A stretch of DNA of 64,000 nt, taken from the NCBI GenBank assembly GCA_030145845.1, contig JAIXHJ010000006.1, positions 124,001-188,000 of the forward strand, given 5' to 3'. Shown piece by piece: positions 8,325 to 61,505 of this stretch (positions are counted from its first letter, which is position 1; every line of letters starts with the position of its first letter). The notes beneath the pieces are model-generated. The model saw only the letters and a program-made list of their open reading frames with translations. It was not told the DNA's origin and made no database searches. The stretch is from Pseudomonadota bacterium (GTDB lineage: Bacteria > Pseudomonadota > Gammaproteobacteria > Pseudomonadales > Oceanobacteraceae). Both the position numbers and the translations under genes were made by a program.

Positions 8325-8325
8325 C

Positions 8326-9652: not shown

Positions 9653-9758
9653 CACAGATAAGGCCGGAGACTACCGTAGCCGGTCCGCTGCGGTAAACCT
9701 TTTCAAGCCCTGCGGCTCAGGGTAGTCTGTCAGCAATACCAATACACCGGAAAACAAT

Positions 9759-10589: not shown

Positions 10590-10595
10590 GACGGC

Positions 10596-10832
10596 TCAGC
10601 CATCTACCCGCTGCGCCAGCCGGCGGACACACGCTTCGCAGATACAGGCCTGGCCACGCAGCGGCGCCGGCACTTTATTAAGCAAGTCGTCGCTGAAGCT
10701 GATATCCGTTGCCATGCACCAGCAACTGCGCGGATCTTTACCCGCCTCCAGCGCGCATTGATTACGCCCGCCACACAAGGGGCAGCGGCTGCGATCTGTA
10801 TCTGCTGCTGAATCCGGAGTTTCTGTCATCAC
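10596..10832 (-). CDS. Cysteine-rich CWC-family small protein
   Basis: 78 residues with three Cys clusters: CPLCGGRNQCALE, SCWCM and CICEACV. The order CPxCG-x3-C, C-W-C, then C-x-C-x2-C is the cysteine-rich CWC family, thought to bind zinc or another metal. No function is known for the family. It converges on the solute-binding gene with 6 bases between stops and lies upstream of nothing it obviously belongs with; argG follows on the same strand after a 131-base gap that includes the argG terminator. Confidence 0.85.
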   Translation of the reverse strand: MMTETPDSAADTDRSRCPLCGGRNQCALEAGKDPRSCWCMATDISFSDDLLNKVPAPLRGQACICEACVRRLAQRVDG

Positions 10833-10913
10833 TCACCCGTCATTACCTGCCGGCGGTTATCGTCAGCCATTAAACCACTGACGCCGTATGCCAGGGCCTC
10901 GCTACTGCCATAA

Positions 10914-10940
10914 AAAAAGAGCGCCGCAGCGCTCTTTTTA
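10914..10940. terminator. Terminator of argG
   Basis: AAAAAGAGCGC pairs with GCGCTCTTTTT around a CGCA tetraloop, 24 bases beyond the argG stop on the minus strand, with T-runs in both directions. Confidence 0.93.
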
Positions 10941-10963
10941 CCACTTAAAAAAACCGTCACCGC

Positions 10964-12181
10964 TTACAGCAGGTTACGGCCTTTTTTCGCAGCGGTACGC
11001 AGACGCAGAGCGTTCAGCTTAATAAAGCCTTCCGCATCTTTCTGGTTGTATGCACCGGCATCATCTTCGAAGGTGGCAATGGCTTCGTCGAACAGCGAGT
11101 CTTCAGACTTACGGCCAACAACAATCACGTTGCCTTTGTACAGTTTCAGGCGCACTTCACCGTTAACCACTTTCTGGGTTTCGTCGATGGCGGCCTGCAG
11201 CATTTTACGCTCAGGAGACCACCAGTAACCGTTGTAAATCAGGCTGGCGTATTTCGGCATCAGCTCGTCTTTCAGGTGGGCGGCTTCACGGTCCAGAGTG
11301 ATGGACTCAATGGCGCGGTGTGCTTTCAGCAGTACGGTACCGGCCGGCGTTTCGTAACAGCCGCGGGCTTTCATGCCGACATAACGGTTTTCCACGATGT
11401 CGACACGACCGATACCGTTGGCACCCGCCAGTTTGTTCAGCTCTTCCATAATAGTGGCCGGTGATTTTTCCACACCGTCCAGCGCTACGGCATCACCGTT
11501 TTTGAAGGTGATGTTCAGGTAAGTTGCTTCGTCCGGTGCGTTTTCCGGAGAAACAGACCACAGCCACATATCTTCTTCCGGCTCGGCCCATGGATCTTCG
11601 ATCAGGTCGCCTTCATAGGAAATGTGCAGCAGGTTAGCGTCCATGGAGTATGGCGACTTTTTGCCTTTTTTCTTTTCTACGTGGATGTTGTGTTCATCAC
11701 AGTAGGCCATGAGTTTTTCACGGGAGTTCAGATCCCACTCACGCCATGGCGCAATCACTTTTACGCCGGGTTTCAGTGCGTAAGCACCCAGCTCGAAACG
11801 CACCTGGTCGTTACCTTTACCGGTTGCACCGTGGGCAATGGCATCTGCACCGGTTTCGTTGGCAATTTCGATCAGACGCTTGGAAATCAGCGGACGGGCA
11901 ATGGAAGTGCCCAGCAGGTATTCACCTTCATAGATGGTATTGGCACGGAACATCGGGAATACGAAGTCACGGGCAAACTCTTCACGCAGGTCATCGATGT
12001 AGATTTCTTTGATGCCCAGCGCTTCCGCCTTGGCACGTGCCGGTTCAACCTCTTCGCCCTGACCGAGGTCAGCGGTAAAAGTAACCACTTCGCACTTGTA
12101 CTCTTCCTGCAGCCATTTTGCGATCACAGAAGTATCCAGACCACCGGAATAGGCCAGCACGACTTTTTTGATGTCTGACAT
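10964..12181 (-). CDS. argG: Argininosuccinate synthase
   Basis: 405 residues, full length. It joins citrulline and aspartate using ATP to give argininosuccinate, the penultimate step of arginine biosynthesis, in the cytosol. The N-terminal ATP pyrophosphatase motif [15 protein letters not shown], the citrulline-binding [13 protein letters not shown] and [17 protein letters not shown] are all present, as are the C-terminal [37 protein letters not shown] residues. It is monocistronic, with a terminator on each side. No arginine-repressor box was identified by eye in the 75 bases upstream before the preceding terminator. Confidence 0.98.
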
Positions 12182-12255
12182 GAATTTCTCCAGATGAAAT
12201 CAGCCGTCGTATCCCTGCAGACCGGACCCGGCGTGCGTTTGAGCGACGGAAAAAG

Positions 12256-12290
12256 AAAAGGGCAGCATTCTAACGGTATGCTGCCCTTTT
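12256..12290. terminator. Terminator of the TSP3-lipoprotein operon
   Basis: AAAAGGGCAGCAT pairs with ATGCTGCCCTTTT around a 9-base loop. On the minus strand it follows the stop at 12321 and insulates argG from read-through. Confidence 0.93.
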
Positions 12291-12320
12291 ATCCAGCTCA
12301 GTAGCGGAGAATGCCCGGAC

Positions 12321-13001
12321 TTACTGGCATTCCACCATCACGAAGGTGGTATTCCACATTTCCGTGCCTTCATCGCTGAAGCTGCGGCCGATCATGACAT
12401 CACCGTACTTGCTGACATAAAAGCTGAGACTGTCTGTGCCCACGGTAACGGACAGGGTGCCATTGCTGAAGCTGTTGATGGTGCCGGTAAAACTCTCCGG
12501 TTCCGAGTACGACTGCAGAGACCCTGTCAGGCCAGCAATGTCGTAGCCGTCATAAGTGTAATACTGCACACTCAGTCCCAGCTCCATCTCATCTGCTGAA
12601 TTACCGGTCACGCTGAACTGAGTGCTGCTGGTAATGGACAGAGTTGAAGTTTCGGAAGCGGCATTCACGCTGGCGTAGTTATCATCACCCTCATAACGGC
12701 CGGCCGTGTGGTTCTGAACCATGCAGTAGGTACGGCCCACCAGGTCCGAGGCATCAGTCACTTCCTGCGGCAGGGCATCAATCTGCGCCTGCAAATCTTC
12801 AATCGCAGACTGCAGCGTGCTGATGTCAGTGGCGTTGGCATCCACCGCAGTCGTCACGGCGGTAAAGTTACCGTTCACTTCAGAGGCAACCGCGGCGGTG
12901 CCACTCTGAAACGTGGTCATTGCGCTGCTGTCGACAGTGCCCGCCTGAGTGGCCACAGCCGCTGACAGTAACGCGATTCCTGCTGATACTTTGATAGTCA
13001 T
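12321..13001 (-). CDS. Secreted protein with short coiled coil, unknown function
   Basis: 226 residues. A signal peptide (VSAGIALLSAAVATQA) is followed by TTFQSGTAAVASEVNGNFTAVTTAVDANATDISTLQSAIEDLQAQIDAL, a short segment of the F-x-GT-A-A-EVN-NF type seen at the start of many exported and tail-fibre-like proteins, then a short coiled coil. The C-terminal 130 residues form predicted beta strands with two cysteines (YCMVQ near the start, VECQ at the very end) that could pair. The gene begins 32 bases after the upstream lipoprotein gene with a CAGGAG ribosome site, so the two are probably an operon and may act together at the cell surface. Confidence 0.72.
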   Translation of the reverse strand: MTIKVSAGIALLSAAVATQAGTVDSSAMTTFQSGTAAVASEVNGNFTAVTTAVDANATDISTLQSAIEDLQAQIDALPQEVTDASDLVGRTYCMVQNHTAGRYEGDDNYASVNAASETSTLSITSSTQFSVTGNSADEMELGLSVQYYTYDGYDIAGLTGSLQSYSEPESFTGTINSFSNGTLSVTVGTDSLSFYVSKYGDVMIGRSFSDEGTEMWNTTFVMVECQ

Positions 13002-34280: not shown

Positions 34281-34314
34281 GATCTGCTGGCTGCAGAAAG
34301 GCTACAATCTGACA

Positions 34315-35136
34315 ATGGATATCTCAGAAGCGACATACGATGAACCGATCCGGGCCGGATTTGTGGAAGATCCGCAACGCCCGGTGCTGTGCTTCGCCAA
34401 CCACCAGCCACGTGGTCACCGGGTGCGCAGTCACCGTCATCCGCGCGCGCAGGTGGTGTGGGCGGTGTCCGGTGCCATGCGGGTGGTCACGGATGAGGCC
34501 AGCTGGATTGTACCGCCGACCCATGCGGTGTGGATTCCGTCCGGTCAGCGCCATCAGGTGACCTCACTGACCGAAACCTCGGTGCGTTATCTTTATATCG
34601 ACGCAACGGCCTGCAGTGGATTACCGCAGGATGCCCAGGTGCTGGAAGTCACCGCCCTGATGCGTGAGCTGGCGTTACGAATGCTGAAATACGAAACCCT
34701 GCTGCTGAACAACACGCCGCTGCCGGCAGCCGAGCAGCAGAGCCTGGATCTGACCCTGGCGCTGTTGCTGGATGAGCTGTCGCATCTGCAGCCGGCGCCG
34801 CTGTATCTGCCCAGCGCCCGCGACCGGCGTCTGCACCGGCTGATGCATACGCTGGTACGCCACCCGGATAATAACCAGCGGCTGGAAGAGCTGGCGGCCG
34901 GCAGTGGCGCCAGCGTCAGAACACTGGAGCGGCTGTTCCGCAAAGAAACCGGGATGAGTTTCCAGCAATGGCGCACACGGGTAAAACTGATGGAATCAGT
35001 CAACCGCCTGGTGGAAGGAGAAAGCAGTGCCGCCATCGCCCATTCGCTGGGCTACCGCAGCAGCAGCGCTTTTGTCGCTGCTTTCCGCCGCCATTTCGGC
35101 AAGCCGCCACAGAGTTTTATCCGCACCCGGGAATAG
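34315..35136 (+). CDS. AraC-family regulator (cupin sensor)
   Basis: 273 residues from the ATG at 34315; the open frame upstream to 33937 lies antisense to the transporter. An N-terminal cupin (GHRVRSHRHPRAQVVWAVSGAMRVVTDEASWIVPPTHAVWIPSGQRHQV) is followed by a C-terminal double helix-turn-helix (LEELAAGSGASVRTLERLFRKETGMSFQQWRTRVKLM, then SSAAIAHSLGYRSSSAFVAAFRRHFGKPPQSF). It resembles regulators placed opposite the genes that they control, so the DASS transporter 34 bases away is the likely target. Its stop abuts the NikR-like gene. Confidence 0.88.
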   Translation: MDISEATYDEPIRAGFVEDPQRPVLCFANHQPRGHRVRSHRHPRAQVVWAVSGAMRVVTDEASWIVPPTHAVWIPSGQRHQVTSLTETSVRYLYIDATACSGLPQDAQVLEVTALMRELALRMLKYETLLLNNTPLPAAEQQSLDLTLALLLDELSHLQPAPLYLPSARDRRLHRLMHTLVRHPDNNQRLEELAAGSGASVRTLERLFRKETGMSFQQWRTRVKLMESVNRLVEGESSAAIAHSLGYRSSSAFVAAFRRHFGKPPQSFIRTRE

Positions 35137-35586
35137 TCAGTCCCTGGGCGGTAACGGATGAATCGGCGGAATAATGTAGGAATTCAGCAGCAGACGGCCG
35201 TACACCACCCCACGCAGGGTAATCATTTTATCGGCAATCATATTCAGCTTATCGGCCGGCCCCTGAATCAGGATAATGGATAAGGTATTGGTGTTGGTCA
35301 GGTTAACGTTAAGACTGCTGATCACTTCGTCCAGATATTCAAACTGCAGGTCCTGCAGACGCTTGTTCAGCCCCGCTGTCGAATGGTTGTAAACCAGATT
35401 CACGGTCCCCGTCATCACCTCGCTGCCACGCTGTGAACGGTACTCGTTAATCTGATGGTTAATCATGTCACAGATGGCCTGGGAACGGCTTTCAAAGCCG
35501 CGCTGCGTGACCATTTCATCCAGCCCTTCCAGCAGGGTTTCGGGCATGGAAATACTGATGCGGCTGATTTTTTCTTTACTGCTCAT
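35137..35586 (-). CDS. NikR-like ribbon-helix-helix regulator lacking nickel ligands
   Basis: 149 residues. N-terminal RHH DNA-binding domain (ISRISISMPETLLEGLDEMVTQRGFESRSQAICDMINHQI) and a C-terminal ACT-like domain that aligns with NikR throughout (VYNHSTAGLNKRLQDLQFEYLDEVISSLNVNLTNTNTLSIILIQGPADKLNMIADKMITLRGVVYG). The four high-affinity nickel ligands of E. coli NikR (His76, His87, His89, Cys95) correspond here to Phe82, Asn93, Asn95 and Thr101. It therefore should not sense nickel by the known mechanism. It is the last gene of the ABC/creatininase/glutamine-synthetase set and may sense another ligand. Confidence 0.85.
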   Translation of the reverse strand: MSSKEKISRISISMPETLLEGLDEMVTQRGFESRSQAICDMINHQINEYRSQRGSEVMTGTVNLVYNHSTAGLNKRLQDLQFEYLDEVISSLNVNLTNTNTLSIILIQGPADKLNMIADKMITLRGVVYGRLLLNSYIIPPIHPLPPRD

Positions 35587-35599: not shown

Positions 35600-35630
35600 C
35601 CGGCAGATGCCGGCCCCTATGCATGGGGGC
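35600..35630. promoter_or_regulatory. Two palindromes just upstream of the NikR-like gene
   Basis: CCGGCAGATGCCGG (35600-35613) and GCCCCTATGCATGGGGGC (35613-35630) lie between the glutamine-synthetase stop and the ribosome site of the NikR-like gene (AAGGAAATGATATG on the minus strand). They could be operators for autoregulation or RNA hairpins. No NikR consensus (GTATGA-N16-TCATAC) is seen. Confidence 0.4.
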
Positions 35631-35734: not shown

Positions 35735-37105
35735 TCAGAACAGGTGGCTGTAACGCTCAGTTTCCCAGGCGCTGACTGCAGTGTGGTATTCATTCCACTC
35801 CGCCTGCTTGTAACGGATAAATTCGTTACGCAGTTCAGTGCCCAGAACCTGTTCCACAAACGGGTCAGCGGCAAACGCTTCGATGGCTTCGAACAGCGTA
35901 CGCGGCAGGAAATTAATCCCTTTGGCCTCACGCTCTTCTTCTGTCAGTTCGTACAGGTTCTTCTCCTGCGGCTTGCCCGGATCAATGCCCTCTTTAATGC
36001 CTTCCAGACCCGCTGCCAGCACCAGTGCTGCTGCCAGATACGGGTTAACGGCACCATCCGCATTACGGGATTCGCAGCGGCCACCGCCCATCGGCACCCG
36101 GACAGAGTTGGTGCGGTTATTGGAACCGAAGGAATTGAATACCGGTGCCCAGGTGAAGTAAGGCATATCGCCCTGCCGCACCAGACGCTTGTAGGAGTTA
36201 ACCGTTGGCGCAAAGACCGCACACAGTGCCGGACCGTGTTTCAGGATACCGCCGATAAACTGGTAACCCAGCTTGGTCAGCCCCAGACCATACGGGTCAT
36301 CTTCCGGCTTGCACTGGAACAGGTTTTCACCACTTTCCAGATCGTACAGTGACATATTGAAATGCGCGCCGTTACCGGTACGGTTGGAGAACGGCTTCGG
36401 CATAAAGGTGGCCAGCAGGTCTTCCTGCTTGGCGTATTCCTTGGCCATCATTTTCAGGAAGGTAAAACGGTCACAGGTAGTCACCACATCGGCGTATTTG
36501 AAATCAAACTCAAACTGACCGTTGGCATCTTCGTGGTCGAAGGAATATACGTCCCAGCCCAGATCATTCATGCTGGTAACCATTTTATCGACCCAGCTGA
36601 AATTGCTTAAAAAAGCGCGGGTGTCATAACAGGGTTTTTTCAGTTTGTCGTCCGGGTCCGGAATTTCAAGCGTACCGTTTTCATTTTTCTTCAGCAGATA
36701 CACTTCCGCCTCGATACCCAGATTCATGCCATAACCCAGAGCATTGGCCTCCTCCAGCACTTTTTTCAGCAGCACCCGGGTATTCAGCATATAAGGCTCG
36801 CCATAGAGCGTATTATCGGCAGGCATCCAGGCGATTTCCGGCTGCCATGGCAGCTGAATAATATGGTCCAGATCCGGTACCGACGCGATTTCATCATCGT
36901 TCGGCGCCTGGCCCAGACCATCCAGAGCATAACCGGTATACAGCTCAGAACCATGGGCCATATGATGCAGATGGGAAATGGGAACAATTTTCCCCTTGGG
37001 AACACCGTGAATATCCACATAGGTGCCCATGCAGTATTTAACGCCTTTGCTCTTCAGCTCTTCCTGAATCGCAGTGATTTCCGCATCGGTTTTGGTCTCA
37101 ATCAT
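35735..37105 (-). CDS. Type III glutamine-synthetase-like ligase
   Basis: 456 residues from the ATG at 37105, which follows AAAGGTAATTAAA; the GTG at 37123 is an alternative start but lies in that ribosome site. The GS fold is complete: [22 protein letters not shown] (beta-grasp), [34 protein letters not shown], and [20 protein letters not shown]. It is not the dodecameric GlnA type but the GlnT/glutamate-amine ligase class, which can join glutamate to ammonia or to an amine. Located between a creatininase-family gene and a NikR-like regulator in the importer operon, it may capture released ammonia or gamma-glutamylate an amine. The substrate is unproven. Confidence 0.88.
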
Positions 37106-37253
37106 TTTAATTACCTTTTTCACATGATATTGACCCGACTGAGCCGTTAGGGCGGCTAGCCTGAAATTTTCGCCGGGGTTATGGTTGCAGCCGGCCGTTA
37201 ACCTGAAAACAGATCACGGCTGACCAGTAAAGGGACAAGCGCCCTGTCAAACA

Positions 37254-38033
37254 TTAAACGTCAGCATCCTCCAGGATGCTGTGGTTATAACTCTGATTTA
37301 ATGGTGGCTCTTCATTCACTGCTTTATTCAGTACCGCCGTCAGGTCATCACACATCCAGCCGAACAGTTTTTCACCGTCCGCTGCCGTTGCTGCAGAGGG
37401 GGTACCGGTTACACCATTCAGACTGGTACGGTTCACCGGATGGCTGAATACACAGCCCTCGGTGCGGTCCGGGTCATCGGCCTGCTGCAGCTTATCTTCA
37501 CGTACAATCTGTGGGTGCAGAGCCATCATCAGCGCGGTTTCAGCATGGTTGGCATGCCAGTCTTCAGCATCGTCGTGATGGGCCTTTTTCACCCGCTCTG
37601 AAATCTGTGCGGTATGCACCAGGGCAATCATCAGGTCGTCATGGCGGGCACGCAGAATTTCCAGCGCGCAACGCAGTGGTGCAGCATTGGTCACGTGGCC
37701 GTTAATCAGCACCAGCCGGCGGATACCGGAAGATTTCACCCAGTCACCGATATCAGAGATCACATCAATCAGGGTTTTCGGGTTCAGCGCTATGGTACCC
37801 GGCCAGCGCTTTGAATGACCGACTGAACAGCCGTAGGGCAAAGTCGGCAGCAGAAAAACATCGGTATTTTCCGCGACTTTACGGCACAGGGTATCAGCGA
37901 TAGCGCTGTCCATGCCGCAGCCCATATGCGGGCCATGCTGTTCCGTGGCACCAACCGGCAGAATCGCAGTGCGGACACCGGACCTGACAGCTGCGCCGAC
38001 TTCTTCCCAGGTCATACTGGCTAATTCGTACAT
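37254..38033 (-). CDS. Creatininase-family amidohydrolase
   Basis: 259 residues. Metal-binding motifs: PVGATEQHGPHMGCGMDSAIA (Glu-His and Asp ligands), and ...DWHANHAETALMMA where the usual HAGE-x-ETS region sits; the NGHGGN motif is replaced by NGHVTN. Family members hydrolyse creatinine, formamides or other cyclic amides with divalent metals. The changed NGHVTN and HANHAETA suggest a different substrate from creatinine. Its start overlaps the stop of the ABC ATPase by one base, so it is translationally coupled to the transporter and should act on the imported compound. Confidence 0.85.
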   Translation of the reverse strand: MYELASMTWEEVGAAVRSGVRTAILPVGATEQHGPHMGCGMDSAIADTLCRKVAENTDVFLLPTLPYGCSVGHSKRWPGTIALNPKTLIDVISDIGDWVKSSGIRRLVLINGHVTNAAPLRCALEILRARHDDLMIALVHTAQISERVKKAHHDDAEDWHANHAETALMMALHPQIVREDKLQQADDPDRTEGCVFSHPVNRTSLNGVTGTPSAATAADGEKLFGWMCDDLTAVLNKAVNEEPPLNQSYNHSILEDADV

Positions 38034-38944
38034 CAGAATACACTCCCTACATCATCATTAACCGGCACCATACGCACCAGATTCAGGTGATCGTCATCGG
38101 TTTCTTCTGCCGGTGGATGAATCAGTTCTTCAATATGTTTTTTGGTCGCCAGAAATTCCTGTGACAGGAACTGATCCGGATGACGCGGTTGCGGTACCGG
38201 CACTTCCACCAGTTCCTGCACTTCCCCCGGATTGGCTTTCAGCACCAGAATACGGTCGGCCAGATACACGGCTTCATCCAGATCGTGGGTAATAAAGAAC
38301 ACGGTAATATCGATGTTCTTCCAGATCTCCATCAGATAAGCCTGCATTTTCGCCCGGGTCTGGGCATCCAGCGCGCCGAACGGTTCATCCATCAGCAGGA
38401 TTTTCGGCTTATTGGCCAGCGCCCGCGCAATGGCCACACGTTGTTTCATACCGCCGGACAGCTGGTGCGGATAACTGTTTTCAAACCGCGACAGGCCGAT
38501 CAGTTCAATCCACTGGCGCGCTTCAGCCTCGGCGCTGTTTTTATCCATGCCGGATTCAAGCAGGCCGAACATAATGTTGCGTTTGACGGTCAGCCAGGGA
38601 AACAGGGTGTACCCCTGAAACACCATGCCGCGTTCCGGACCTGGTTTGCTGACAGCCTTACCGTCGAGCAGCACCTGCCCTTCACTGGCCTGCTCCAGTC
38701 CGGCGAGAATACGGATCAGGGTGGACTTACCACAGCCTGACGGGCCAATCACACAGACAAATTCGCGTTTATGAATTTTCAGATCAATATTTTTCAGCGC
38801 GGTCACTTCACCATGCAGGCCGTTGAATTTTTTCGTCAGCCCCTTCACTTCCATGGTCACCGGACGCTGTTTCAGCCGCTCAAAACGGTCTTTGACTTCC
38901 GGGCTCTGCTTTTTGTAATCGGGTAAATTCACATCAGTCATCAC
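38033..38944 (-). CDS. ABC transporter ATPase (SsuB/TauB/NrtD type)
   Basis: 303 residues. Walker [10 protein letters not shown], signature [15 protein letters not shown], Walker [13 protein letters not shown], and the switch histidine in [10 protein letters not shown]. The family imports nitrate, taurine, aliphatic sulfonates or related small nitrogen and sulfur compounds together with a TM subunit and a periplasmic binding protein. A C-terminal extension of about 40 acidic residues ([32 protein letters not shown] region) is unusual. Overlaps creatininase by one base; 18 bases after the permease. Guanidine or urea-like compounds are the likely cargo from context. Confidence 0.92.
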
Positions 38945-38962: not shown

Positions 38963-39910
38963 TTACTTGCTTTGTTGCCACGGAAACAGACGACGGCCAA
39001 TCCACGCCAGCAGCAGATCAATGGTCAGACCGAGAATACCGATCATCATGATGGCGGCGAAAACATTGTCGAAATTCTTGTAGCGGGCCTGCTGGGTAAT
39101 AAACCAGGTAATACCGGAACTGGTACCGATCAGCTCCGCCACAATCAGATAGGTCCAGGCCCAGCCCAGCAGGATACGGATATCACGGTACAGGTCGGGC
39201 AGAATGCCCGGCACAACGATGCGGAACAGCATGGAGCGGTTGCCCGCGCCCAGCGTCTGCCCGGCTTCGAGTAATGCCGGATCCAGTTTGCGCGTGGTAT
39301 TGGCAACCACCAGCACCTGCTGAAAAAAGGTACCGATAAAAATAATGGCAATTTTCGGTGCCTGATAAATACCCAGAATGGCGACGGCGAGTGCGCCAAA
39401 AGCCGGGGCCGGCAGGTAGCGGAAAAACTCAATAAAGGGTTCAAACAGGCGGGAGAAGAAATCATAGGTTCCGGCCAGAATACCCAGCGGAATACCGATA
39501 ATGGAGGAAATCACAAACCCCCAGAAAATAACCTGAATACTGCTCCACAGGCTTTCGTGCAGCCAGGCTTCGCTGCGGCGCTGGGGTTCGGTGGTAAACG
39601 CGGTATAAAACGCAGTAACCACTTCGTGGGGAGCCGGCAGGTACACAGGGTTCGCCGGAATGCCCTGCGGCAGAGCCGTGCCATTTTCTTCAGCGGTGGC
39701 GGATTCGTTATAGAAAATTTCTTTATCCACCAGCATATCGTTACGGAAATAACTGACAGAACCCGGATCGGTCACCTTCATATCCGGATGCCAGATAAAG
39801 GGCACATAACTGACCATGCACCAGAGCAGAACAGGCAGGCCGAAGCTGCACAGAGCAACAAGCGTTCTGCTGCGGCGATCCAGTGGTTTATTAACGGTAA
39901 ACAGTGACAT
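38963..39910 (-). CDS. ABC transporter permease
   Basis: 315 residues. A first membrane helix (LVALCSFGLPVLLWCMVSYVPFIW) is followed by an unusually long periplasmic segment of about 70 residues, then five more helices with the BPD family cytoplasmic loop EAGQTLGAGNRSMLFRIVVPGILPDL. Partners are the ATPase 18 bases downstream and the binding protein 130 bases upstream. The extra periplasmic segment may contact the binding protein. Confidence 0.9.
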   Translation of the reverse strand: MSLFTVNKPLDRRSRTLVALCSFGLPVLLWCMVSYVPFIWHPDMKVTDPGSVSYFRNDMLVDKEIFYNESATAEENGTALPQGIPANPVYLPAPHEVVTAFYTAFTTEPQRRSEAWLHESLWSSIQVIFWGFVISSIIGIPLGILAGTYDFFSRLFEPFIEFFRYLPAPAFGALAVAILGIYQAPKIAIIFIGTFFQQVLVVANTTRKLDPALLEAGQTLGAGNRSMLFRIVVPGILPDLYRDIRILLGWAWTYLIVAELIGTSSGITWFITQQARYKNFDNVFAAIMMIGILGLTIDLLLAWIGRRLFPWQQSK

Positions 39911-40040: not shown

Positions 40041-41012
40041 TTACAGAGATTCCATAATGGAAGGATCAATGTAGCTGTCGACCGGTTGTTTATCGCTGTA
40101 GACCTTGTTGTCGACGTTGAACTGATCGGCAATTTCCGTGGAGCCATACAGAGACTTGAAGCCTTCCGCTTTCTTCATAAATGGCAGTGCTTCTTTCAGC
40201 GTCAGGATCTTGGTGCCATCGATAAAGCCTTTGTATTCCAGCGCTGACAGACCAACACGGGCCGCCATAATGCTGATGGCATCGTCACGGGTCGCCGGAT
40301 CTTTCAGGTAATCCACCGCCTGATACCAGACTTTAACCACTTTCTTCCATTCTTCTTTGTGTGCCGACAGGCTGGCAGGTGATACGGCCAGCACGTCATA
40401 GATCAGACCAGGTTCGTTAGCACTGGAATAGATACGCTTGGAACCCGGAACCAGTTTCAGCGCCTGACCGGAACTTGGCTGCCACGCACCGATTGCGTCC
40501 ACCTGACCGGAAGCCAGCACCTGAGGCGTTTCGTTGGTCGGTACATTCACCAGTTCAACGTCATCCTCTGTCATGCCATTTTTTTCCAGCGCATTCAGCA
40601 GCAGCAGGTGGTCAACAAAGCCCACTTCCACACCGATTTTCTTACCTTTCAGGTCCTTGATCGACTTGATACCCGGAGCACCGACAATCATGTCGTTACC
40701 GGCACTGTAGTCGTTGATCAGGATCATGACGTTCTGTGCGCCGGTAGAACCGGTCACCAGCGCATCACCGTTGGTCATCGCAACCGCATCCAGCTGACCG
40801 GCAGCAAAGGCATCCATACTGGCAACGTAGTCAAACCATTCGAACTGAACGTCCACCCCTTCTTTTTCGAACATTTTCTTCTCAATGGCGATTTCCCAGG
40901 CTACCCAGCCCGGCCAGTCGCTGTAACCGATTTTCAGTGGTTCAGCGAGTGCACCACCCGCCATTAACAGTCCAGCGAGCAATGAGCCAATAAAGCGTTT
41001 CTTGATCGTCAT
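40041..41012 (-). CDS. Periplasmic substrate-binding protein of ABC importer
   Basis: 323 residues. A signal peptide ([18 protein letters not shown]) is followed by [67 protein letters not shown], the NMT1/taurine-binding (SsuA/NrtA-like) fold. The first gene of the leftward operon; a GGGAGA ribosome site precedes the ATG, and a sigma-54-type promoter lies 48 bases upstream. In other genomes closely placed homologues are called urea carboxylase-related ABC transporter. Substrate guanidine or a related compound is inferred from the neighbouring riboswitch and enzymes. Confidence 0.9.
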
Positions 41013-41059
41013 AGGTGTCTCCCGGTATTACGGTTTTGGATTCTGGTAATACTGGTCAT

Positions 41060-41075
41060 AGCACCAAGCGTGCCA
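41060..41075 (-). promoter_or_regulatory. Sigma-54-type promoter for the leftward ABC operon
   Basis: On the minus strand TGGCACGCTTGGTGCT matches the sigma-54 consensus TGGCACGNNNNTTGCW at all but one of its defined positions, with the GG and GC exactly 10 bases apart. The expected start of transcription is near 41049, leaving a short leader before the ATG at 41012. Confidence 0.75.
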
Positions 41076-41378: not shown

Positions 41379-41394
41379 TGGCACAGTCTTCGCT
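41379..41394 (+). promoter_or_regulatory. Sigma-54-type promoter for the rightward carboxylase operon
   Basis: TGGCACAGTCTTCGCT matches the sigma-54 consensus except for two positions, with GG and GC 10 bases apart. The expected start is near 41405, about 65 bases before the riboswitch. Confidence 0.7.
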
Positions 41395-41469
41395 TTATAC
41401 TAATAACACCGCTGGCGCAGCCGGCGGTGACTACGCGGTACAGGGTAACGACAGCAGTTACCCATCAAT

Positions 41470-41580
41470 AAGGGCACTAGGGTTCCGGCTGATTGCATCA
41501 GTGACTGGTCCGAGAGTGACCGACCTGCCAGCAGCGTACTGGAAGGTTACACGGAGGGATAAAAGCCCGGGAGATCAACA
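41470..41580 (+). ncRNA. Guanidine-I (ykkC) riboswitch
   Basis: The conserved blocks of the class occur in order: CTAGGGTTCCG (41477-41487), ACTGGTCCGAGAG (41504-41516) and ACACGGAGGGATAAAAGCCCGGGAGA split here as ACACGGAGGGATAAAAGCCC (41549-41568) followed by GGGAGA. This RNA binds guanidinium and turns on the downstream genes. The 171 bases to the first gene (41581-41751) contain a GATGGT/ACCATC hairpin and a T-rich stretch but no clear intrinsic terminator, so the switching mechanism cannot be read. Its presence names the carboxylase below as guanidine-related. Confidence 0.93.
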
Positions 41581-41751: not shown

Positions 41752-42489
41752 ATGCACAACCAATATATGCTGGGTGAACCTGTTTACGAAGATACACTGG
41801 GCGGTGGCTGCCACTGGTCAATGCGGGTTAAAAAAGGCACCCTGCTGACACTCACCGACGTCAAAGGCGGCGCCAATGTCGGCATGCTGTTCTTTAATCC
41901 TTACGACCTGCTGGAAAAATACAACGCACCCGACACCCTGAAATGTCAGCATACGTTCAAACTGACGGCCGGTAACTGCCTGTATTCCGATATGGGTCGC
42001 ATTTTCGCTTCCATTGTTGAAGATGACTGTGGCTGGCACGACACCGTGTGCGGCAACCTGAACAAAGAAAACCTGGAAAAAAAATGGACCCTGAAAACCT
42101 ATCAGGAAGCGCATAACGACTGGACCAAAAACGGCTATGACAGCTTTCTGGTAGAGCTGGCGAAGTACGGTTTAAACCGTAAGGATATGGCCGCCAACCT
42201 GAATCTGTTCAGCCGCGTGGAAACCGATGATGACGGCAATATGCAATACATTGCCGGAGCCTCCAGAGCCGGTAACGCCGTTACCCTGCGCTTTGAAATG
42301 GATACCCTGGTCGTGCTGCACACCTGCCCTCACCCACTCGACACCGCCGGCGAATACCCGGTACGTCCGGTGCATTACCGTCTGGCCAGAGCCAAACCGG
42401 TCGCCGATGACGATCCGTGCAAAAACCACTGCGACGAAAACCAGCGCGGTTTTAAAAATAATTTCCTGTACAACTTCTGTGAAGCCTGA
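41752..42489 (+). CDS. DUF1989 protein, carboxyguanidine deiminase-type subunit 1
   Basis: 245 residues. It has the urea-amidolyase-associated DUF1989 pattern: [54 protein letters not shown] and [19 protein letters not shown] with several Cys/His likely to bind metal. Proteins of this type were long called urea carboxylase-associated proteins; paired subunits (CgdA/CgdB) deiminate carboxyguanidine to allophanate. It is first in the operon under the guanidine riboswitch. The start ATG follows AAGGAG. Confidence 0.87.
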
Positions 42490-42502: not shown

Positions 42503-43141
42503 ATGATCAAAGCAAGCAACCTCGACCCGAACGATGCGCTGTTCCGTCAGGAAATTCTGGCCGGTGATTATTTCATTCACCGCATTGAAGCCGGACAGAC
42601 CATCCGTATTCTCGATCTGGAAGGCAATCAGGCCGCAGACACCCTGTTTTACAATGCCGACGACCCCAGTGAACGCTACAGCGCTATGGATACCATCCGC
42701 GAACAGGGCAATGTGTATCTCACTGCCGGTTCAGTCCTGATGACCAATGAAAACCGTCCGCTGCTGGAAATTGTCGCCGACACCTGTGGCCGCCACGACA
42801 CCCTGGGCGGCGCCTGTGCCACCGAGTCCAACACCGTACGTTATTCACTGGAAAAGAAATGCATGCACGCCTGCCGTGACAGCTGGATGCTGGCCATTGC
42901 CGAACACGAAGAATTCGGTCTGGATAAAGCCGACATCACGCACAACATCAATTTCTTCATGAATGTGCCCATTACCAGAGAAGGCGGCCTGACCTTCGCC
43001 GATGGTATTTCCGATGCCGGCAAATACGTGGAACTGAAAGCCCTGATGAATACCATTGTGCTGATTTCCAATTGCCCGCAGCTGAATAACCCCTGCAATG
43101 CCTATAACCCGACACCGGTTGAAGTGCTGGTGTGGGAATAA
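42503..43141 (+). CDS. DUF1989 protein, carboxyguanidine deiminase-type subunit 2
   Basis: 212 residues from the ATG at 42503, 13 bases after the previous stop; the frame extends to 42227 inside the neighbour and is ignored. Motifs: [57 protein letters not shown] and [23 protein letters not shown]. It is a paralogue of the upstream gene with the same TCG-HDT metal-site pattern, consistent with a heteromeric deiminase. It should act on the product of the carboxylase encoded next. Confidence 0.88.
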
Positions 43142-43231
43142 GCCGTCAGCCACAGAAACATGACAGCTCCGGACGACCGGAGGCTGACAGAATTTCCGGC
43201 GGGACGACCCGCCAGCAAGTGAGAATGGACC

Positions 43232-46200
43232 ATGTTCAGTAAAGTCTTAATCGCTAACCGGGGCGCCATCGCCGTCCGGATTATCCGCACCCTGAAAAAA
43301 ATGAATATCGGGGCCGTCGCGGTTTACCACGAAGCAGACCGCCACTCCCTTCACGTACAGCAGGCTGATGAAGCCTTCTGCCTGGGCAATGGCAGCGTGG
43401 CCGATACTTACCTGAATCAGGAAAAAATTCTGTCATTCGCCCGCGAAAGTGGTGCCGGAGCCATTCACCCCGGCTACGGTTTTCTCAGTGAGAACACAGG
43501 TTTTGCCGCCGCCTGTCAGCAGGCCGGCATCGTTTTTCTTGGCCCGCGTCCGGAGCATATGGATGCCTTCGGCCTGAAGCACAGTGCCCGCGCCCTGGCA
43601 GAAGCCAATCATGTCCCGCTGCTGCCCGGAACAGAACTGCTGACCAGCCTCGACAGCGCCCTGTCGGAGGCTGAACGTATCGGTTATCCACTGATGCTGA
43701 AAAGTACCGCCGGTGGTGGTGGTATCGGTATGCAGCTGTGCTACAGCAGCGGGGAACTGGCTCAGGCATTCGAATCAGTGAAACGCCTGAGCGCTAACAA
43801 CTTCGCCAACGACGGTGTGTTTTTAGAAAAATTTGTCGAAAAAGCACGCCATATCGAAGTCCAGATTTTCGGTGATGGTGCAGGCAACGTGATCGCCCTC
43901 GGCGAACGTGACTGCTCCATTCAGCGCCGCAACCAGAAAGTGCTGGAAGAAACCCCGGCTCCCGGTCTGAGTGAGGCATTACGCAGCGAACTGCACGCCA
44001 CCGCAGCCCGTCTGGGCGCGGCGGTGAATTATCAGAGTGCCGGCACGGTGGAATTTATTTTCGATGCCGGCAGCCACGAATTTTATTTCCTCGAAGTAAA
44101 TACCCGCTTACAGGTGGAACACGGTGTCACCGAACAGGTTTACGGCGTTGACCTGGTGGAATGGATGATCCGTCTCGGCGCCGGCGAACCCCTGCCACTG
44201 GAGCAGGCATTTACCGCCCGCGGCCACAGCATGCAGGCGCGTATTTATGCCGAAGATCCGGTACAGGATTTTCAGCCCTGCGCCGGCCTGCTGAGCAGTG
44301 TGCAGTTCCCGCCGCAGAGCAGTGCGCTGCGGATCGATACCTGGGTGGAAAGCGGCAGCGAAGTCCCTGCCCTGTTCGACCCCATGATTGCCAAGGTGAT
44401 TACCACCGCGGATAACCGTGATCAGGCGATGCAATTATTGACGGACGCACTGGCACAGACCGAACTGTACGGTATTGAAACCAACCGCCGTTATCTGCTG
44501 GATATTCTCGCCGACAAGCGGGTACAGAGCGGTGATGTTTATACCCAGCTACTGAAAACCCTGAACCACAAACCAACCTCAGTGCAGGTGCTGAGTGCCG
44601 GCACCCAGACCACGATTCAGGATTTACCGGCACGTACCGGTTACTGGGATATCGGGGTACCGCCATCCGGCCCGTTTGATGGTTATTCCTTTGCCCTGGG
44701 TAACCGTCTGCTCGGTAACCCCGACAACGCCGCCGGCCTGGAAATCACCATCAAAGGCCCGCTGCTGAAATTCCATGCGCCAACCACCGTACTGCTGGCC
44801 GGCGCCCGGACCCCTGCAACCCTCAGCCGTGGAGAAGAAAGCCACGATCTCGCCTTCTGGCAGCCAATTACAGTGCAGGCCGGTGATCTGCTCGACTGCG
44901 GCAGCGTCAGTGACGCCGGCGCCCGCGCCTATCTGCTGCTGGCCGGTGGTTTCAGTTGCCCCGACTATCTCGGCTCCAAAGCCACCTTTACCCTGGGTCA
45001 GTTCGGTGGCCATAACGGCCGCGCGTTACTGCCCGGCGACGTTCTGCATTTTACCGCCACAGACAATACCGTCGCGGCACTGCCGGCAGAACTGCAGCCG
45101 GCCATCAGCCACGAATGGGAAATGCGCGTTATTTACGGCCCGCACGGTGCACCGGAGTTTTTTACTCAGCAGGATATCGACACTTTTTTCGCTCACACCT
45201 GGGAAGTGCATTACAACTCCAGCCGCACCGGTGTGCGTTTAATCGGACCAAAACCGGAATGGGCACGGCAGGATGGCGGTGAAGCCGGTCTGCATCCTTC
45301 CAATATTCACGATAATGCCTACGCCATCGGCGCGGTGGATTTCACCGGTGACATGCCGGTTATTCTCGGTCCGGATGGCCCCAGCCTGGGCGGTTTTGTC
45401 TGCCCGGTAACCGTCATTACCGCCGACCTGTGGAAAATGGGTCAGCTGCGTGCCGGCGATAAAATCCGTTTTATTCCGGTCAGCCAGCAGACGGCGGTGG
45501 AGCTGGCAGAAAAACAACAGCAGGCCCTGCAGTCTCTGCAGGTGTCAGCAACTAACATCACCACCTATATGCCTGCCAGCCCGGTCCTGCATGAAATTTC
45601 CGCCGCTGACCACCCGACCGGAGTGATTTACCGCCCTGCCGGTGACCGCTATTTACTGGTGGAATACGGTCCGCTGCAGCTGGATATCCGCCTGCGTTTC
45701 CGCGCCCACGCCTTAATGCAGCATCTGCAGCAGCAGAAGACGGACGGCCTGTGGGAACTGACCCCGGGTATCCGTTCACTGCAGGTGCACTACGACTCCA
45801 CCGTCATCAGCCAACAGGCGGTGCTGGATTTACTCATCGAAGCAGAAAATCACCTCGGTGACCTGAAAGACGCCGAAGTGCCATCACGCATCGTCCATCT
45901 GCCGCTGTCGTGGGACGATGAGGTCTGCCGTCTGGCGGCACAGAAATACATGCAGTCAGTGCGCGCCGATGCCCCCTGGTGTCCGGATAATATTGAATTC
46001 ATCCGTCGCATTAACGGCCTTGAGTCTGTTGATCAGGTCAAAGACATTGTCTTTAACGCCAGCTATCTGGTGATGGGACTGGGTGACGTTTATCTCGGCG
46101 CACCGGTGGCAACCCCGGTTGATCCGCGCCATCGTCTGGTGACCACCAAATACAACCCGGCGCGCACCTGGACTGCGGAAAATTCCGTCGGCATCGGCGG

Positions 46201-46825
46201 CGCTTATATGTGTATTTACGGCATGGAAGGTCCGGGCGGTTACCAGTTTGTCGGCCGTACCCTGCAGATGTGGAACCGCTATAAAAAGACGAAGGAATTT
46301 ACTCAGCCCTGGCTGCTGCGTTTCTTCGATCAGGTACGTTTCTATGAAGTCAGCCACGACGAACTGACCAGAATCCGCGAACAGTTCCCGCATGGCCAGT
46401 ACCCGATTAAAGTGGAAGAAACGCGCTTTAATCTGGCGGAATACGAACAGTTCCTCGCGCAACAGGGCGAAGGCATTAACGCCTTCCAGCAGGAACGGCA
46501 GAAAGCCTTCCAGGCCGAACTGGAAGAATGGAAAGCCTCCGGCCGTTTCCATTATGAAGCCGATACCGAACTGGAAGAGGAAGGTGAAGAACGGCCGCTG
46601 GCAGACGATGAATTCAGCATCGACAGCCATGTGTCAGGCAACGTCTGGCAGTGTCTGGTCAAACCCGGTGACCGGGTGGAATCCGGGCAGCCGCTGATGG
46701 TGCTGGAATCCATGAAAATGGAAATCGATATTTCCAGCCATCAGGCCGGCACCGTGGTGGAAGTGCTGCGCGATACCGGTCAGGGCGTCAGCCCGGGTAA
46801 GGCGCTGGTGATTCTCAGACACTGA
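43232..46825 (+). CDS. Guanidine (urea-type) carboxylase
   Basis: 1197 residues, full length for this class. Domains: biotin carboxylase (1 to about 445; KVLIANRGAIAVRIIRTL, KSTAGGGGIGM, FLEVNTRLQVEHGVTE), then a KipA-like half (about 455-760; TGYWDIGVPPSGPFDGYS), a KipI-like half (about 790-1040; LVMGLGDVYLGAPVATPVDPRH), a helical linker and a biotin carrier domain with the biotin lysine in LESMKMEID (Lys1162). ATP and bicarbonate are used to carboxylate guanidine or urea. The upstream guanidine riboswitch and two DUF1989 subunits favour guanidine. An allophanate hydrolase, normally next, is absent. Confidence 0.93.
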   Translation: MFSKVLIANRGAIAVRIIRTLKKMNIGAVAVYHEADRHSLHVQQADEAFCLGNGSVADTYLNQEKILSFARESGAGAIHPGYGFLSENTGFAAACQQAGIVFLGPRPEHMDAFGLKHSARALAEANHVPLLPGTELLTSLDSALSEAERIGYPLMLKSTAGGGGIGMQLCYSSGELAQAFESVKRLSANNFANDGVFLEKFVEKARHIEVQIFGDGAGNVIALGERDCSIQRRNQKVLEETPAPGLSEALRSELHATAARLGAAVNYQSAGTVEFIFDAGSHEFYFLEVNTRLQVEHGVTEQVYGVDLVEWMIRLGAGEPLPLEQAFTARGHSMQARIYAEDPVQDFQPCAGLLSSVQFPPQSSALRIDTWVESGSEVPALFDPMIAKVITTADNRDQAMQLLTDALAQTELYGIETNRRYLLDILADKRVQSGDVYTQLLKTLNHKPTSVQVLSAGTQTTIQDLPARTGYWDIGVPPSGPFDGYSFALGNRLLGNPDNAAGLEITIKGPLLKFHAPTTVLLAGARTPATLSRGEESHDLAFWQPITVQAGDLLDCGSVSDAGARAYLLLAGGFSCPDYLGSKATFTLGQFGGHNGRALLPGDVLHFTATDNTVAALPAELQPAISHEWEMRVIYGPHGAPEFFTQQDIDTFFAHTWEVHYNSSRTGVRLIGPKPEWARQDGGEAGLHPSNIHDNAYAIGAVDFTGDMPVILGPDGPSLGGFVCPVTVITADLWKMGQLRAGDKIRFIPVSQQTAVELAEKQQQALQSLQVSATNITTYMPASPVLHEISAADHPTGVIYRPAGDRYLLVEYGPLQLDIRLRFRAHALMQHLQQQKTDGLWELTPGIRSLQVHYDSTVISQQAVLDLLIEAENHLGDLKDAEVPSRIVHLPLSWDDEVCRLAAQKYMQSVRADAPWCPDNIEFIRRINGLESVDQVKDIVFNASYLVMGLGDVYLGAPVATPVDPRHRLVTTKYNPARTWTAENSVGIGGAYMCIYGMEGPGGYQFVGRTLQMWNRYKKTKEFTQPWLLRFFDQVRFYEVSHDELTRIREQFPHGQYPIKVEETRFNLAEYEQFLAQQGEGINAFQQERQKAFQAELEEWKASGRFHYEADTELEEEGEERPLADDEFSIDSHVSGNVWQCLVKPGDRVESGQPLMVLESMKMEIDISSHQAGTVVEVLRDTGQGVSPGKALVILRH

Positions 46826-59203: not shown

Positions 59204-60163
59204 TCAGATATCGAGCACAAGGCGCGGGCTTTTGGCACGGGAACAACACACCAGAATCTGATCGTTGTCTTCCTTTTCTTCGTCGGTGAGGAATACATCA
59301 CGGTGATCCGGAATGCCTTCCAGCACATCACACAGACAGGTGCCGCAGGTGCCCTGCTCACAGGAAACTTTGATTTTCACACCGGCTTCGGCCAGTGCCT
59401 CAACAATGGTCTGATTCTCACCGACCTGTACAGTCACACCACTGGCTTCAGCCACGACCTCAAAACTGTCACCGCCGGTTTCCACATCAACCTGGAAAAA
59501 TTCACGGTGAATATGATCGTCGGCAAAACCTGTAGCCGCAGCGGTATCAATCACCCACTCCATAAAGCCGGTCGGGCCGCAGACATACACATGGCCCTGG
59601 GTATCAGCCGGTCTGAGCAGACCGTCGATATCCAGACGCTGACCATCATGTTCATCATCGAACCAGGTATTCACACGGTCAGAAAATCCGCTGGCTGCGA
59701 GGTCTTCCAGGAATGCGCAAGTGGCGCGTGAACGTCCGCAGTACCAGAGTTCAAATGAACGACCGGCAGCCTGCAGCGCATAAGCCATGGCGATCATGGG
59801 GGTAATGCCGATACCACCGCCGATAAGAATGGAATGGCCAGCGTCTTCTGCCAGTGGAAACAGGTTACGCGGTGCACTGATCAGCACTTCGGTACCTTCA
59901 TGCATCGTCTCATGCACAGCCACTGAACCACCGCGTGAAGCCGGGTCTTTGAGAATACCCAGACGATAGGCACTGGTATCAGCAGGATCACTGCACAGCG
60001 AATACTGACGCACAATGCCGTCACCGATATGCAGATCAACGTGAGCGCCGGCGGCAAACAACGGCAGAGGTTTTCCCTCCGGGTCGGCCAGTTCCAGGGC
60101 AATCACATCAGCTGCCTGCTGTTCGCGTCTGCGCACGATCACTTTCAGCAATTCATCACTCAT
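59204..60163 (-). CDS. iacF: IacF: 2Fe-2S ferredoxin reductase of IAA dioxygenase
   Basis: 319 residues from the ATG at 60163, which has GGTGGAG 6 bases upstream; the frame to 60250 lacks a usable site. Order is FAD/NAD first, ferredoxin last: QYSLCSDPAD (flavin-binding Arg-x-Tyr-Ser-like), GGGIGITPMIAMAYAL and VYVCGPTGFMEWVI, then a plant-type 2Fe-2S domain CEQGTCGTCLC...C. This is the phthalate-dioxygenase-reductase organisation. It passes electrons from NADH to the IacCD dioxygenase. There is a 90-base gap to iacE. Confidence 0.9.
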   Translation of the reverse strand: MSDELLKVIVRRREQQAADVIALELADPEGKPLPLFAAGAHVDLHIGDGIVRQYSLCSDPADTSAYRLGILKDPASRGGSVAVHETMHEGTEVLISAPRNLFPLAEDAGHSILIGGGIGITPMIAMAYALQAAGRSFELWYCGRSRATCAFLEDLAASGFSDRVNTWFDDEHDGQRLDIDGLLRPADTQGHVYVCGPTGFMEWVIDTAAATGFADDHIHREFFQVDVETGGDSFEVVAEASGVTVQVGENQTIVEALAEAGVKIKVSCEQGTCGTCLCDVLEGIPDHRDVFLTDEEKEDNDQILVCCSRAKSPRLVLDI

Positions 60164-60253
60164 TTTTAACTCCACCGGTAGTGATACCGGGTTTTTCTGC
60201 TTCAGTACTCTCAGCCTCAGGCGGAGTAATTCATTATTGTTCTGCGCCATGCC

Positions 60254-61009: not shown

Positions 61010-61019
61010 CGCAGACTCC

Positions 61020-61502: not shown

Positions 61503-61505
61503 GAC

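What the first reader, a model, noticed from the sequence alone, without database searches (positions are those of the whole stretch)
35137..35586. NikR-family regulator with every nickel ligand replaced
The protein aligns with NikR along both domains, but His76, His87, His89 and Cys95 correspond to Phe82, Asn93, Asn95 and Thr101. Coordinated loss of all four ligands in an otherwise intact fold suggests a switch of effector rather than decay. It sits at the end of an operon with a transporter, a creatininase-family protein and a glutamine-synthetase-like ligase, so its effector could be a small nitrogen compound or another metabolite.
Basis: partly seen in the sequence, partly recalled or inferred. 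Interest (0 to 1): 0.75.

Follow-up and report, generated by a model that had tools for sequence, protein, structure and literature searches.

The report
Nickel-sensor relative controlling guanidine genes
A protein that looks like the bacterial nickel sensor NikR has lost its nickel site and appears to work instead as the on/off switch for genes that import and break down guanidine, often standing where other bacteria use an RNA guanidine sensor.

Summary
The minus-strand gene 35137-35586 encodes an intact NikR-fold protein with Phe82/Asn93/Asn95/Thr101 at the four nickel-ligand positions. The "coordinated loss" reading needs correction. In the wider clade only Cys95 is gone in every member seen (Thr, rarely Ser/Ile); the histidines vary, and all four are lost in 18 of 81 rows, the window's included. 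The clade sits in guanidine loci: ABC importer, carboxyguanidine deiminase (UAAP1/2), guanidine carboxylase, often creatininase plus GS-III.

Two new findings. (1) A 28-bp operator, GTATTAC-N14-GTAATAC (window 41025-41052), follows a sigma-54-type promoter at the operon head. A copy with at most 2 mismatches lies at a head in 69 of 80 related loci; 9 of the 11 misses are cut contigs. Sites with at most 1 mismatch number 57; spacing and half-site controls give 0-3. (2) The regulator trades places with the Guanidine-I riboswitch: of UAAP1-bearing genomes sampled, 2 of 14 with the regulator have the riboswitch, against 42 of 43 without it. I conclude it represses guanidine uptake and use, probably released by guanidine. 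The effector is inferred. A 2025 review says no guanidine-binding regulatory protein is known.

The parts
35137..35586 (-). NikR-fold regulator (RHH + NikR_C/ACT-like domain), F82/N93/N95/T101 at the nickel-ligand positions
35735..37123 (-). glutamine-synthetase type III-like ligase (TIGR03105, 645 bits, cut-off 469.6)
37254..38033 (-). creatininase-family protein (PF02633); below the cut-off of the three NCBIfam equivalogs it matches
38033..38944 (-). ABC transporter ATPase
38963..39910 (-). ABC transporter permease
40041..41012 (-). ABC substrate-binding protein (NMT1-like; 143 bits to the 'putative urea ABC' model TIGR03427, cut-off 333.9)
41025..41052 (.). operator: perfect inverted repeat GTATTAC-N14-GTAATAC, the only exact copy in the assembly, 12 bp 5' of the SBP start
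41060..41075 (-). sigma-54-type promoter TGGCACGCTTGGTGCT, 7 bp upstream of the operator
41379..41394 (+). second, weaker sigma-54-like site upstream of the divergent riboswitch operon (1 mismatch; at chance level on its own)
41466..41575 (+). Guanidine-I riboswitch (RF00442, 90 bits)
41752..42489 (+). UAAP1 / carboxyguanidine deiminase subunit (TIGR03425, 317 bits)
42503..43141 (+). UAAP2 / second carboxyguanidine deiminase subunit (my start codon; the mechanical ORF begins further upstream)
43165..43212 (+). Guanidine-II riboswitch (RF01068, 39 bits)
43232..46825 (+). carboxylase related to urea carboxylase; Asp at the position of K. lactis Asn1330, hence read as guanidine carboxylase

Best explanation
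The gene encodes the transcriptional repressor of a guanidine uptake and utilisation locus, built on the NikR scaffold. Shown by sequence: the clade keeps NikR's two-domain fold and its DNA-binding layout (a 28-bp inverted repeat with GTAT/ATAC ends, fitting one tetramer with two RHH dimers). It has abandoned the nickel site. It sits with the guanidine importer and, in many genomes, directly ahead of the carboxyguanidine-deiminase/guanidine-carboxylase genes. Its presumed operator lies just downstream of a sigma-54-type promoter, where transcription should start. Inferred: the apo-tetramer sits on the operator and blocks sigma-54 transcription. When guanidine (or methylguanidine) enters the cell it binds in or near the old nickel pocket at the tetramer interface and releases the protein, so the importer, the accessory creatininase/GS-III enzymes and the regulator itself are made. 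That makes it an inducible, autoregulated repressor, opposite in sign to NikR, where nickel is a co-repressor. In many relatives the same operator stands at the head of an operon that includes the carboxylase genes and takes the place of the transcriptional Guanidine-I riboswitch. In the window the two systems split the work: NikR-like for the importer operon, riboswitches I and II for the divergent degradation operon.
For: Neighbourhood: 79 of 80 related loci carry at least one of SBP, UAAP1, carboxylase, GS-III or creatininase beside the regulator. Remote homologues (34-41% identity) in Acinetobacter, Novosphingobium and Asticcacaulis also lie in carboxylase/allophanate-hydrolase/ABC loci, the Acinetobacter one beside an SMR transporter and a 2OG-Fe(II) oxygenase (three of the 27 records with a hit were opened with a gene table). 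Substrate: the carboxylase has Asp where urea carboxylase has Asn1330 in 50 of 50 pieces covering the site, 4 not reaching it (the Asn/Asp rule is recalled). Operator: at most 1 mismatch in 56 of 80 loci (57 sites in 1.41 Mb) against 0-3 sites for eight other spacings and 0 for four other half-site pairs. Promoter: sigma-54-like element in 46 of 56 heads (loose pattern) or 43 of 56 (strict), against 1.1% and 0.14% of 16,000 random 68-mers. The operator recurs at the remote Acinetobacter, Novosphingobium and Asticcacaulis loci (1-2 mismatches). Complementarity with Guanidine-I, UAAP1 counted over its cut-off: class sample 2 of 8 with the regulator, 14 of 14 without (Fisher p 3.8e-4); phylum sample 1 of 7 against 29 of 30 (p 2.0e-5); pooled, shared genomes once, 2 of 14 against 42 of 43 (p 1.6e-9). 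Of 42 clade genomes, 23 of 24 with the regulator directly ahead of UAAP1 lack Guanidine-I; 15 of 18 with UAAP1 elsewhere or not seen have it.
Against: No binding data; effector identity and direction (derepression) are inference. The nickel-site positions, my guess for the pocket, vary a lot within the clade (at least 18 changes at position 82, 9 at 95, 6 at 93 on the 84-row tree), odd for one shared ligand. Fifteen of 58 well-flanked loci show no UAAP1/carboxylase nearby, and one regulator-bearing genome (G661, same species as L064) has no UAAP1 match at E 0.001, so the substrate could differ there. L059 has none of the locus genes in the 10 kb downstream. Guanidine-II is kept in 13 of 31 loci scanned, so guanidine sensing by RNA is often not lost altogether. 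Genome G412 has UAAP1 with neither Guanidine-I nor the regulator. Fisher tests ignore kinship; lineage-independent pairs lean the right way but are too few (5 pairs, median p 0.125). Two uncut loci (L034, L110) lack the operator.
Confidence: 0.68

Rival explanations
1. The protein represses the same operon but senses another metabolite: a downstream product (carboxyguanidine, allophanate), a different guanidino compound handled by the creatininase/GS-III pair, or a general nitrogen signal.
For: Creatininase plus GS-III is the commonest companion (both in 44 of 58 well-flanked loci) and in Hyphomicrobium the operator lies by the regulator/creatininase gap; one regulator-bearing genome has no UAAP1 match. 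The C-terminal domain has the ACT fold, common in amino-acid sensing (recalled).
Against: Nine of 58 loci have the regulator with UAAP1/carboxylase and no creatininase or GS-III. It alternates with a riboswitch whose ligand is guanidine. The importer would have to be switched on before a degradation product can form (inference).
Confidence: 0.17
2. An effectorless or constitutive repressor: it only sets a threshold, and induction comes from the sigma-54 activator (NtrC-like) under nitrogen starvation.
For: Sigma-54-type element directly upstream of the operator in 43-46 of 56 heads; the old ligand pocket is not conserved.
Against: The effector domain is conserved across Pseudomonadota and Verrucomicrobiota with clade-constant residues (E87, S90, Q108, P110 in 57 of 57 rows; E87 is Q in Acinetobacter). 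Where it replaces a guanidine riboswitch, specificity for guanidine would be lost.
Confidence: 0.1
3. It is still a metal sensor (Ni, Cu, Zn or Co) with an altered site.
For: Eleven of 57 rows keep three histidines, H/H/H/T; NikR domains have been solved with Cu and Zn (entry titles).
Against: No site is shared: N/N, Q/Q, H/F, H/L and H/N at positions 87/89 also occur in guanidine loci, several with the same operator; Cys95 is kept in no member seen; the recurrent neighbours are guanidine genes.
Confidence: 0.05

Closest known systems
NikR (nickel-responsive repressor; RHH + ACT-like C-terminal domain)
   Same: Fold along the whole length; constant RHH Arg (R9 = E. coli R3; 57 of 57 and 27 of 27 rows); 28-bp operator ending GTAT...ATAC, with GTATGAC-N14-GTCATAC in Hyphomicrobium, close to the recalled E. 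coli site GTATGA-N16-TCATAC.
   Different: Cys95 and often histidines lost; clade-constant E87, Q108, P110 and a P140/H143 tail; regulon is guanidine transport/degradation behind a sigma-54-type promoter; separate clade (split with SH-aLRT 100).
Guanidine-I (ykkC) riboswitch
   Same: Controls the head of guanidine carboxylase/ABC operons (PMC12508155 and PMC12186494, passages read); in the genomes sampled here the two rarely occur together upstream of UAAP1.
   Different: A protein and DNA operator instead of RNA. Guanidine-II before the carboxylase is often kept.
Guanidine-II riboswitch (mini-ykkC)
   Same: Co-occurs in many of the same loci, which ties them to guanidine.
   Different: Described as a translational switch (PMC12186494, passages read); not replaced where kept.
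CdbA (RHH protein with an organic ligand, c-di-GMP)
   Same: Precedent for an RHH regulator with a non-metal ligand (start of abstract seen).
   Different: Chromosome organisation, not catabolism; whether it has a NikR_C domain was not checked.

Membership tests
NikR (nickel-responsive regulator) | N-terminal RHH plus NikR_C/ACT-like domain | tested here: met
NikR (nickel-responsive regulator) | Square-planar nickel ligands His76', His87, His89, Cys95 | tested here: not met
   F/N/N/T in the window; no clade member with HHHC among 81 (scan biased at this column) or 57 rows; canonical 27 of 27 HHHC
NikR (nickel-responsive regulator) | Curated equivalog models | tested here: inconclusive
   Passes PRK04460 (118.8 vs 105) and PRK02967 (84.2 vs 83), fails TIGR02793 (80.1 vs 175.45)
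NikR (nickel-responsive regulator) | Two half-sites ~28 bp end to end, GTAT/ATAC ends | tested here: met
   a predicted site, binding not shown; E. coli site recalled
NikR (nickel-responsive regulator) | Regulon of nickel uptake or nickel enzymes | tested here: not met
   guanidine-locus genes beside it in 79 of 80 loci; nickel genes were not searched for by name
NikR (nickel-responsive regulator) | High-affinity nickel binding that turns on DNA binding | not testable with these tools
   needs protein
Guanidine-responsive regulator (no protein family described) | Linked to guanidine importer / carboxyguanidine deiminase / guanidine carboxylase | tested here: met
Guanidine-responsive regulator (no protein family described) | Takes the place of the Guanidine-I riboswitch where it precedes the operon | tested here: met
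   association only
Guanidine-responsive regulator (no protein family described) | Binds guanidine and changes DNA affinity | not testable with these tools
   needs protein

The most novel reading that the evidence does not exclude
This is the first protein family of guanidine-sensing transcription factors: a NikR metalloregulator whose metal cation was exchanged for an organic cation, guanidinium, keeping operator geometry and tetramer allostery while the sign flipped from co-repression to induction, and which displaced the Guanidine-I riboswitch in many Pseudomonadota and in Verrucomicrobiota.
Probability: 0.55. Interest if true: 0.9.

Novelty: new variant of a known kind. Interest (0 to 1): 0.82.

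Why it matters
Guanidine is known to bacteria mainly through four riboswitch classes. The 2025 J. Bacteriol. [quoted passage not shown] This clade is a concrete, testable candidate with an operator, a regulon and natural riboswitch-replacement pairs. It would show how a metal-sensing pocket becomes a site for an organic cation and allow RNA and protein sensors of one ligand to be compared in the same operon. It also warns that a "nickel-responsive regulator NikR" label would mislead for this clade: two curated NikR models accept the window protein.

Tried and rejected
Operators at 35600-35630: rejected; the gap differs between relatives and holds no clade operator. Degeneration/pseudogene: rejected; clade-wide conservation of fold, site and locus. 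Chance operator: a <=3-mismatch match in the window is by itself at chance (1 found, 0.88 expected), and the sites with up to 2 mismatches in the genome (11 places, the exact one included) are fewer than the control's 20; only the exact site and its conservation carry weight, and no wider regulon is claimed. Ligase-linked effector: weakened. Literature: guanidine+creatininase+glutamine synthetase+riboswitch (none), NikR+guanidine (16 listings, none on this by title/abstract), guanidine+riboswitch+urea carboxylase+ABC transporter, NikR homologues lacking ligands, guanidine+regulator+carboxyguanidine, guanidine sensor phrases, NikR+urea carboxylase (passages of PMC2667541 read, nickel only), guanidine carboxylase+repressor, guanidine+ykkC+CopG (none), RHH+guanidinium+riboswitch (none): no such regulator seen. 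Listings were judged by title and abstract start, and only open-licence PMC papers are held, so this does not show that it is unpublished.

Biases and dropped rows: the genome-contig scan pattern covers the Cys95 column and accepts only T or I there, so its loci cannot show retained Cys. Searches without that filter gave 15 members, the window included: 9 T, 5 S, 1 I, 0 C. The tool kept the best 80 of 127 relatives. The final tree uses 45 of those 80 loci, the window plus 11 of the other 14 filter-free members (L003, L004, L009 left out), 25 of 44 non-clade hits that had loci, and two references; it is a quick tree with SH-aLRT only. A first tree held a wrong-frame row (L121), replaced. In one search L006, L007, L022, L030 and L031 came out in the wrong frame or strand; L006 and L007 were redone, the other three not used. 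UAAP1 was counted over its cut-off; 14 more genomes (class) and 60 more (phylum) had weaker matches to the model. Guanidine-I genome searches used Infernal's stricter filters; 42 of the 80 loci's genomes were tested, L087 not held. Rfam may lack some guanidine riboswitch classes; I did not check. Operator heads: an automatic rule finds 67 of 80; L068 and L095 add two 1-mismatch sites that I placed at the head by eye. The tetramer and its pocket could not be modelled.

Full report
OBSERVATION. The ORF at 35137-35586 lies on the minus strand. It is an intact 149-aa protein matching RHH_1 and NikR_C and solved NikRs along residues 7-136. F82, N93, N95 and T101 take the places of H76, H87, H89 and C95. 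The AF2 model (pLDDT 85.3) is closest to NikR structures. The own assembly (94.9% complete) has a single NikR_C protein, this one, so no canonical NikR was found beside it.

CONTEXT. On the minus strand the order is SBP, permease, ATPase, creatininase-family protein, GS-III-like ligase, NikR-like. Divergently on the plus strand lie a Guanidine-I riboswitch, UAAP1, UAAP2, a Guanidine-II riboswitch and a large carboxylase. UAAP1/2 correspond to the carboxyguanidine deiminase/hydrolase of the guanidine carboxylase pathway (recalled; pathway layout in PMC12508155 and PMC12186494, passages read). The carboxylase aligns to K. lactis urea carboxylase (3va7) with Asp in place of the Asn at chain position 737, i.e. 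residue 1330 given the 593-residue offset between the 3va7 and 5i8i rows; that this Asn/Asp difference separates urea from guanidine carboxylases is recalled. Of the relatives' carboxylase pieces, 50 of 50 that cover the site have Asp and 4 do not reach it. Allophanate hydrolase is elsewhere in the genome (783 bits). So the locus is for guanidine.

CLADE. A scan of 84,980 species genomes kept 80 loci of 127 relatives, from Thalassolituus and Methylophaga to Methylobacterium, Hyphomicrobium, Parvibaculum and Verrucomicrobiota. In the final tree 57 clade rows form one side of a split from 27 canonical rows (SH-aLRT 100, quick tree). In the 81 clade rows the fourth position is T (79) or I (2), but the scan pattern allowed only these. 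In the 15 filter-free members, the window included, it is T 9, S 5, I 1, C 0. The first three vary: Y/H/H/T 17, H/H/H/T 16, R/H/H/T 10, Y/N/N/T 8, F/N/N/T 7 and others; all four ligands are lost in 18 of 81. So Cys95 is the shared loss, and the full loss belongs to the window's branch and a few others. Clade-constant residues in the 57 rows are E87, S90, Q108, P110 and P140, with H143 in 56; E87 is Q in the remote Acinetobacter copies.

NEIGHBOURS. Of 58 loci with at least 6.5 kb on both sides, 27 have ABC, creatininase, GS-III, UAAP1 and carboxylase; 10 have ABC, creatininase and GS-III only; 8 have ABC, UAAP1 and carboxylase without creatininase or GS-III; 5 have creatininase and GS-III only; the other 8 are mixed. 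Of all 80, 79 have at least one of SBP, UAAP1, carboxylase, GS-III, creatininase; L059 has none in the 10 kb downstream and its contig starts about 100 bp upstream. Remote homologues: of 27 plasmid-collection records with a hit I opened four. Three had gene tables and all three lie in carboxylase/allophanate-hydrolase/ABC loci; the Acinetobacter one is beside an SMR transporter, a 2OG-Fe(II) oxygenase and a hypothetical protein, like the methylguanidine operon of PMC12508155 (passages read) plus an SMR gene. The A. baumannii record had no gene table there.

OPERATOR. Upstream of SBP lies GTATTAC-N14-GTAATAC, exact in the window and the only exact copy in the assembly. Across the 80 loci (1.41 Mb) 57 sites with at most one mismatch fall in 56 loci; eight other spacings give 0-3 sites and four other half-site pairs 0. 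Of 60 loci with the SBP start and 150 bp before it, 56 have a site of at most 2 mismatches within my distance limits; the other 4 (L068, L089, L092, L095) have a site of at most 1 mismatch just outside them, where my ORF starts run too far upstream. A wider automatic rule over all 80 loci gives 67 with a site at a head; L068 and L095, placed by eye, make 69. Of the 11 without, nine contigs begin inside the operon; L034 and L110 are real misses. Hyphomicrobium has GTATGAC-N14-GTCATAC, and L065 and L086 carry a second copy before UAAP1. A sigma-54-like element (TGGCAY-N5-xTGCW) precedes the site in 43 of 56 heads, 46 with a looser pattern, against 0.14% and 1.1% of random 68-mers. In most it ends 2-7 bp before the operator; in L063, L084, L088, L094 and L108 it ends 12-19 bp before it. 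So the operator would usually cover the start point (recalled spacing of sigma-54 promoters). The Acinetobacter head shows the same promoter-plus-operator pair; the Novosphingobium and Asticcacaulis loci have operator copies with 1-2 mismatches.

RIBOSWITCH EXCHANGE. In 274 gammaproteobacterial genomes UAAP1 (over cut-off) occurs in 22, and the clade in 8, all among the 22. Guanidine-I is present in 14 of 14 without the regulator and 2 of 8 with it; in the 6 without riboswitch the matched stretches of regulator and UAAP1 are 47-269 bp apart, same strand. In 369 Pseudomonadota genomes UAAP1 occurs in 37, the clade in 8 (7 with UAAP1; G661 without), Guanidine-I in 29 of 30 without the regulator and 1 of 7 with it; in five of the six negatives the matches are 168-198 bp apart, in G337 about 7 kb. 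Fisher p 3.8e-4 and 2.0e-5, pooled 1.6e-9 with the shared G000 and G107 counted once; these ignore kinship. Exceptions are G412 (neither) and G000 and G213 (both; UAAP1 is not downstream of the regulator there). In 42 clade genomes tested directly, 23 of 24 with UAAP1 straight after the regulator lack Guanidine-I; the exception L074 has it between the two genes. Of the 18 others, 15 have it; L093, L100 and L064 do not. Five lineage-independent pairs lean the same way but cannot reach significance. Guanidine-II is kept in 13 of the 31 loci and in the Methylobacterium-type G337 locus. So the protein stands in for the class I switch, not for class II.

MECHANISM. The most economical reading is an autoregulated repressor with an induced release, at a nitrogen-controlled sigma-54 promoter. 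That it regulates these operons is well supported by operator conservation, though binding is not shown. That guanidine is the effector follows from the exchange with a guanidine riboswitch and from the importer being beside it in 48 of 58 well-flanked loci; it is not shown. The pocket is a guess: the old metal site at the tetramer interface, with residues 82/93/95/101 and the acid E87.

KNOWN OR NEW. The fold family is NikR; membership as a nickel regulator fails on ligands and regulon. [quoted passage not shown] my searches showed no such regulator in the held library. I rate it a new variant of a known kind with high interest.

Noticed in passing
window 35735-38033; L090, L099, L101, L106: A creatininase-family plus GS-III pair travels with guanidine genes and in Hyphomicrobium is alone beside the regulator, with the operator near the divergent gap; its reaction is unknown and may be a second guanidino-compound route.
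   Followed up: partly
L147 (Acinetobacter sp. NCu2D-2 plasmid) 6800-12516: Remote NikR-like regulator with operator and sigma-54-type promoter ahead of allophanate hydrolase and SBP, beside an SMR transporter, a hypothetical protein and a 2OG-Fe(II) oxygenase: looks like a methylguanidine/guanidine locus under protein control.
   Followed up: partly
L065 10579; L086 5966: A second copy of the operator lies between the regulator and UAAP1, suggesting direct control of the degradation genes as well.
   Followed up: no
L074 10563-10685: The one locus seen where a Guanidine-I riboswitch sits between the regulator and UAAP1: a possible transitional arrangement.
   Followed up: no
L143 (G412): UAAP1/carboxylase locus with creatininase and GS-III but neither Guanidine-I nor the NikR-like regulator; control unknown, part of the locus is masked.
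   Followed up: partly
L142 (G661), L064: Regulator, operator, ABC importer, creatininase and GS-III in a genome with no UAAP1 match: the substrate there may be handled by another pathway.
   Followed up: partly
window 34300-35136: AraC-type regulator with cupin domain converging on the operon end; a close homologue also follows the regulator in L033 and L035. Relation to the locus not tested.
   Followed up: no
window 59204-63362: Gene cluster with Rieske-type dioxygenase-like, small-subunit-like, dehydrogenase and ferredoxin-reductase-like ORFs, read by eye only: probable aromatic-acid degradation.
   Followed up: no
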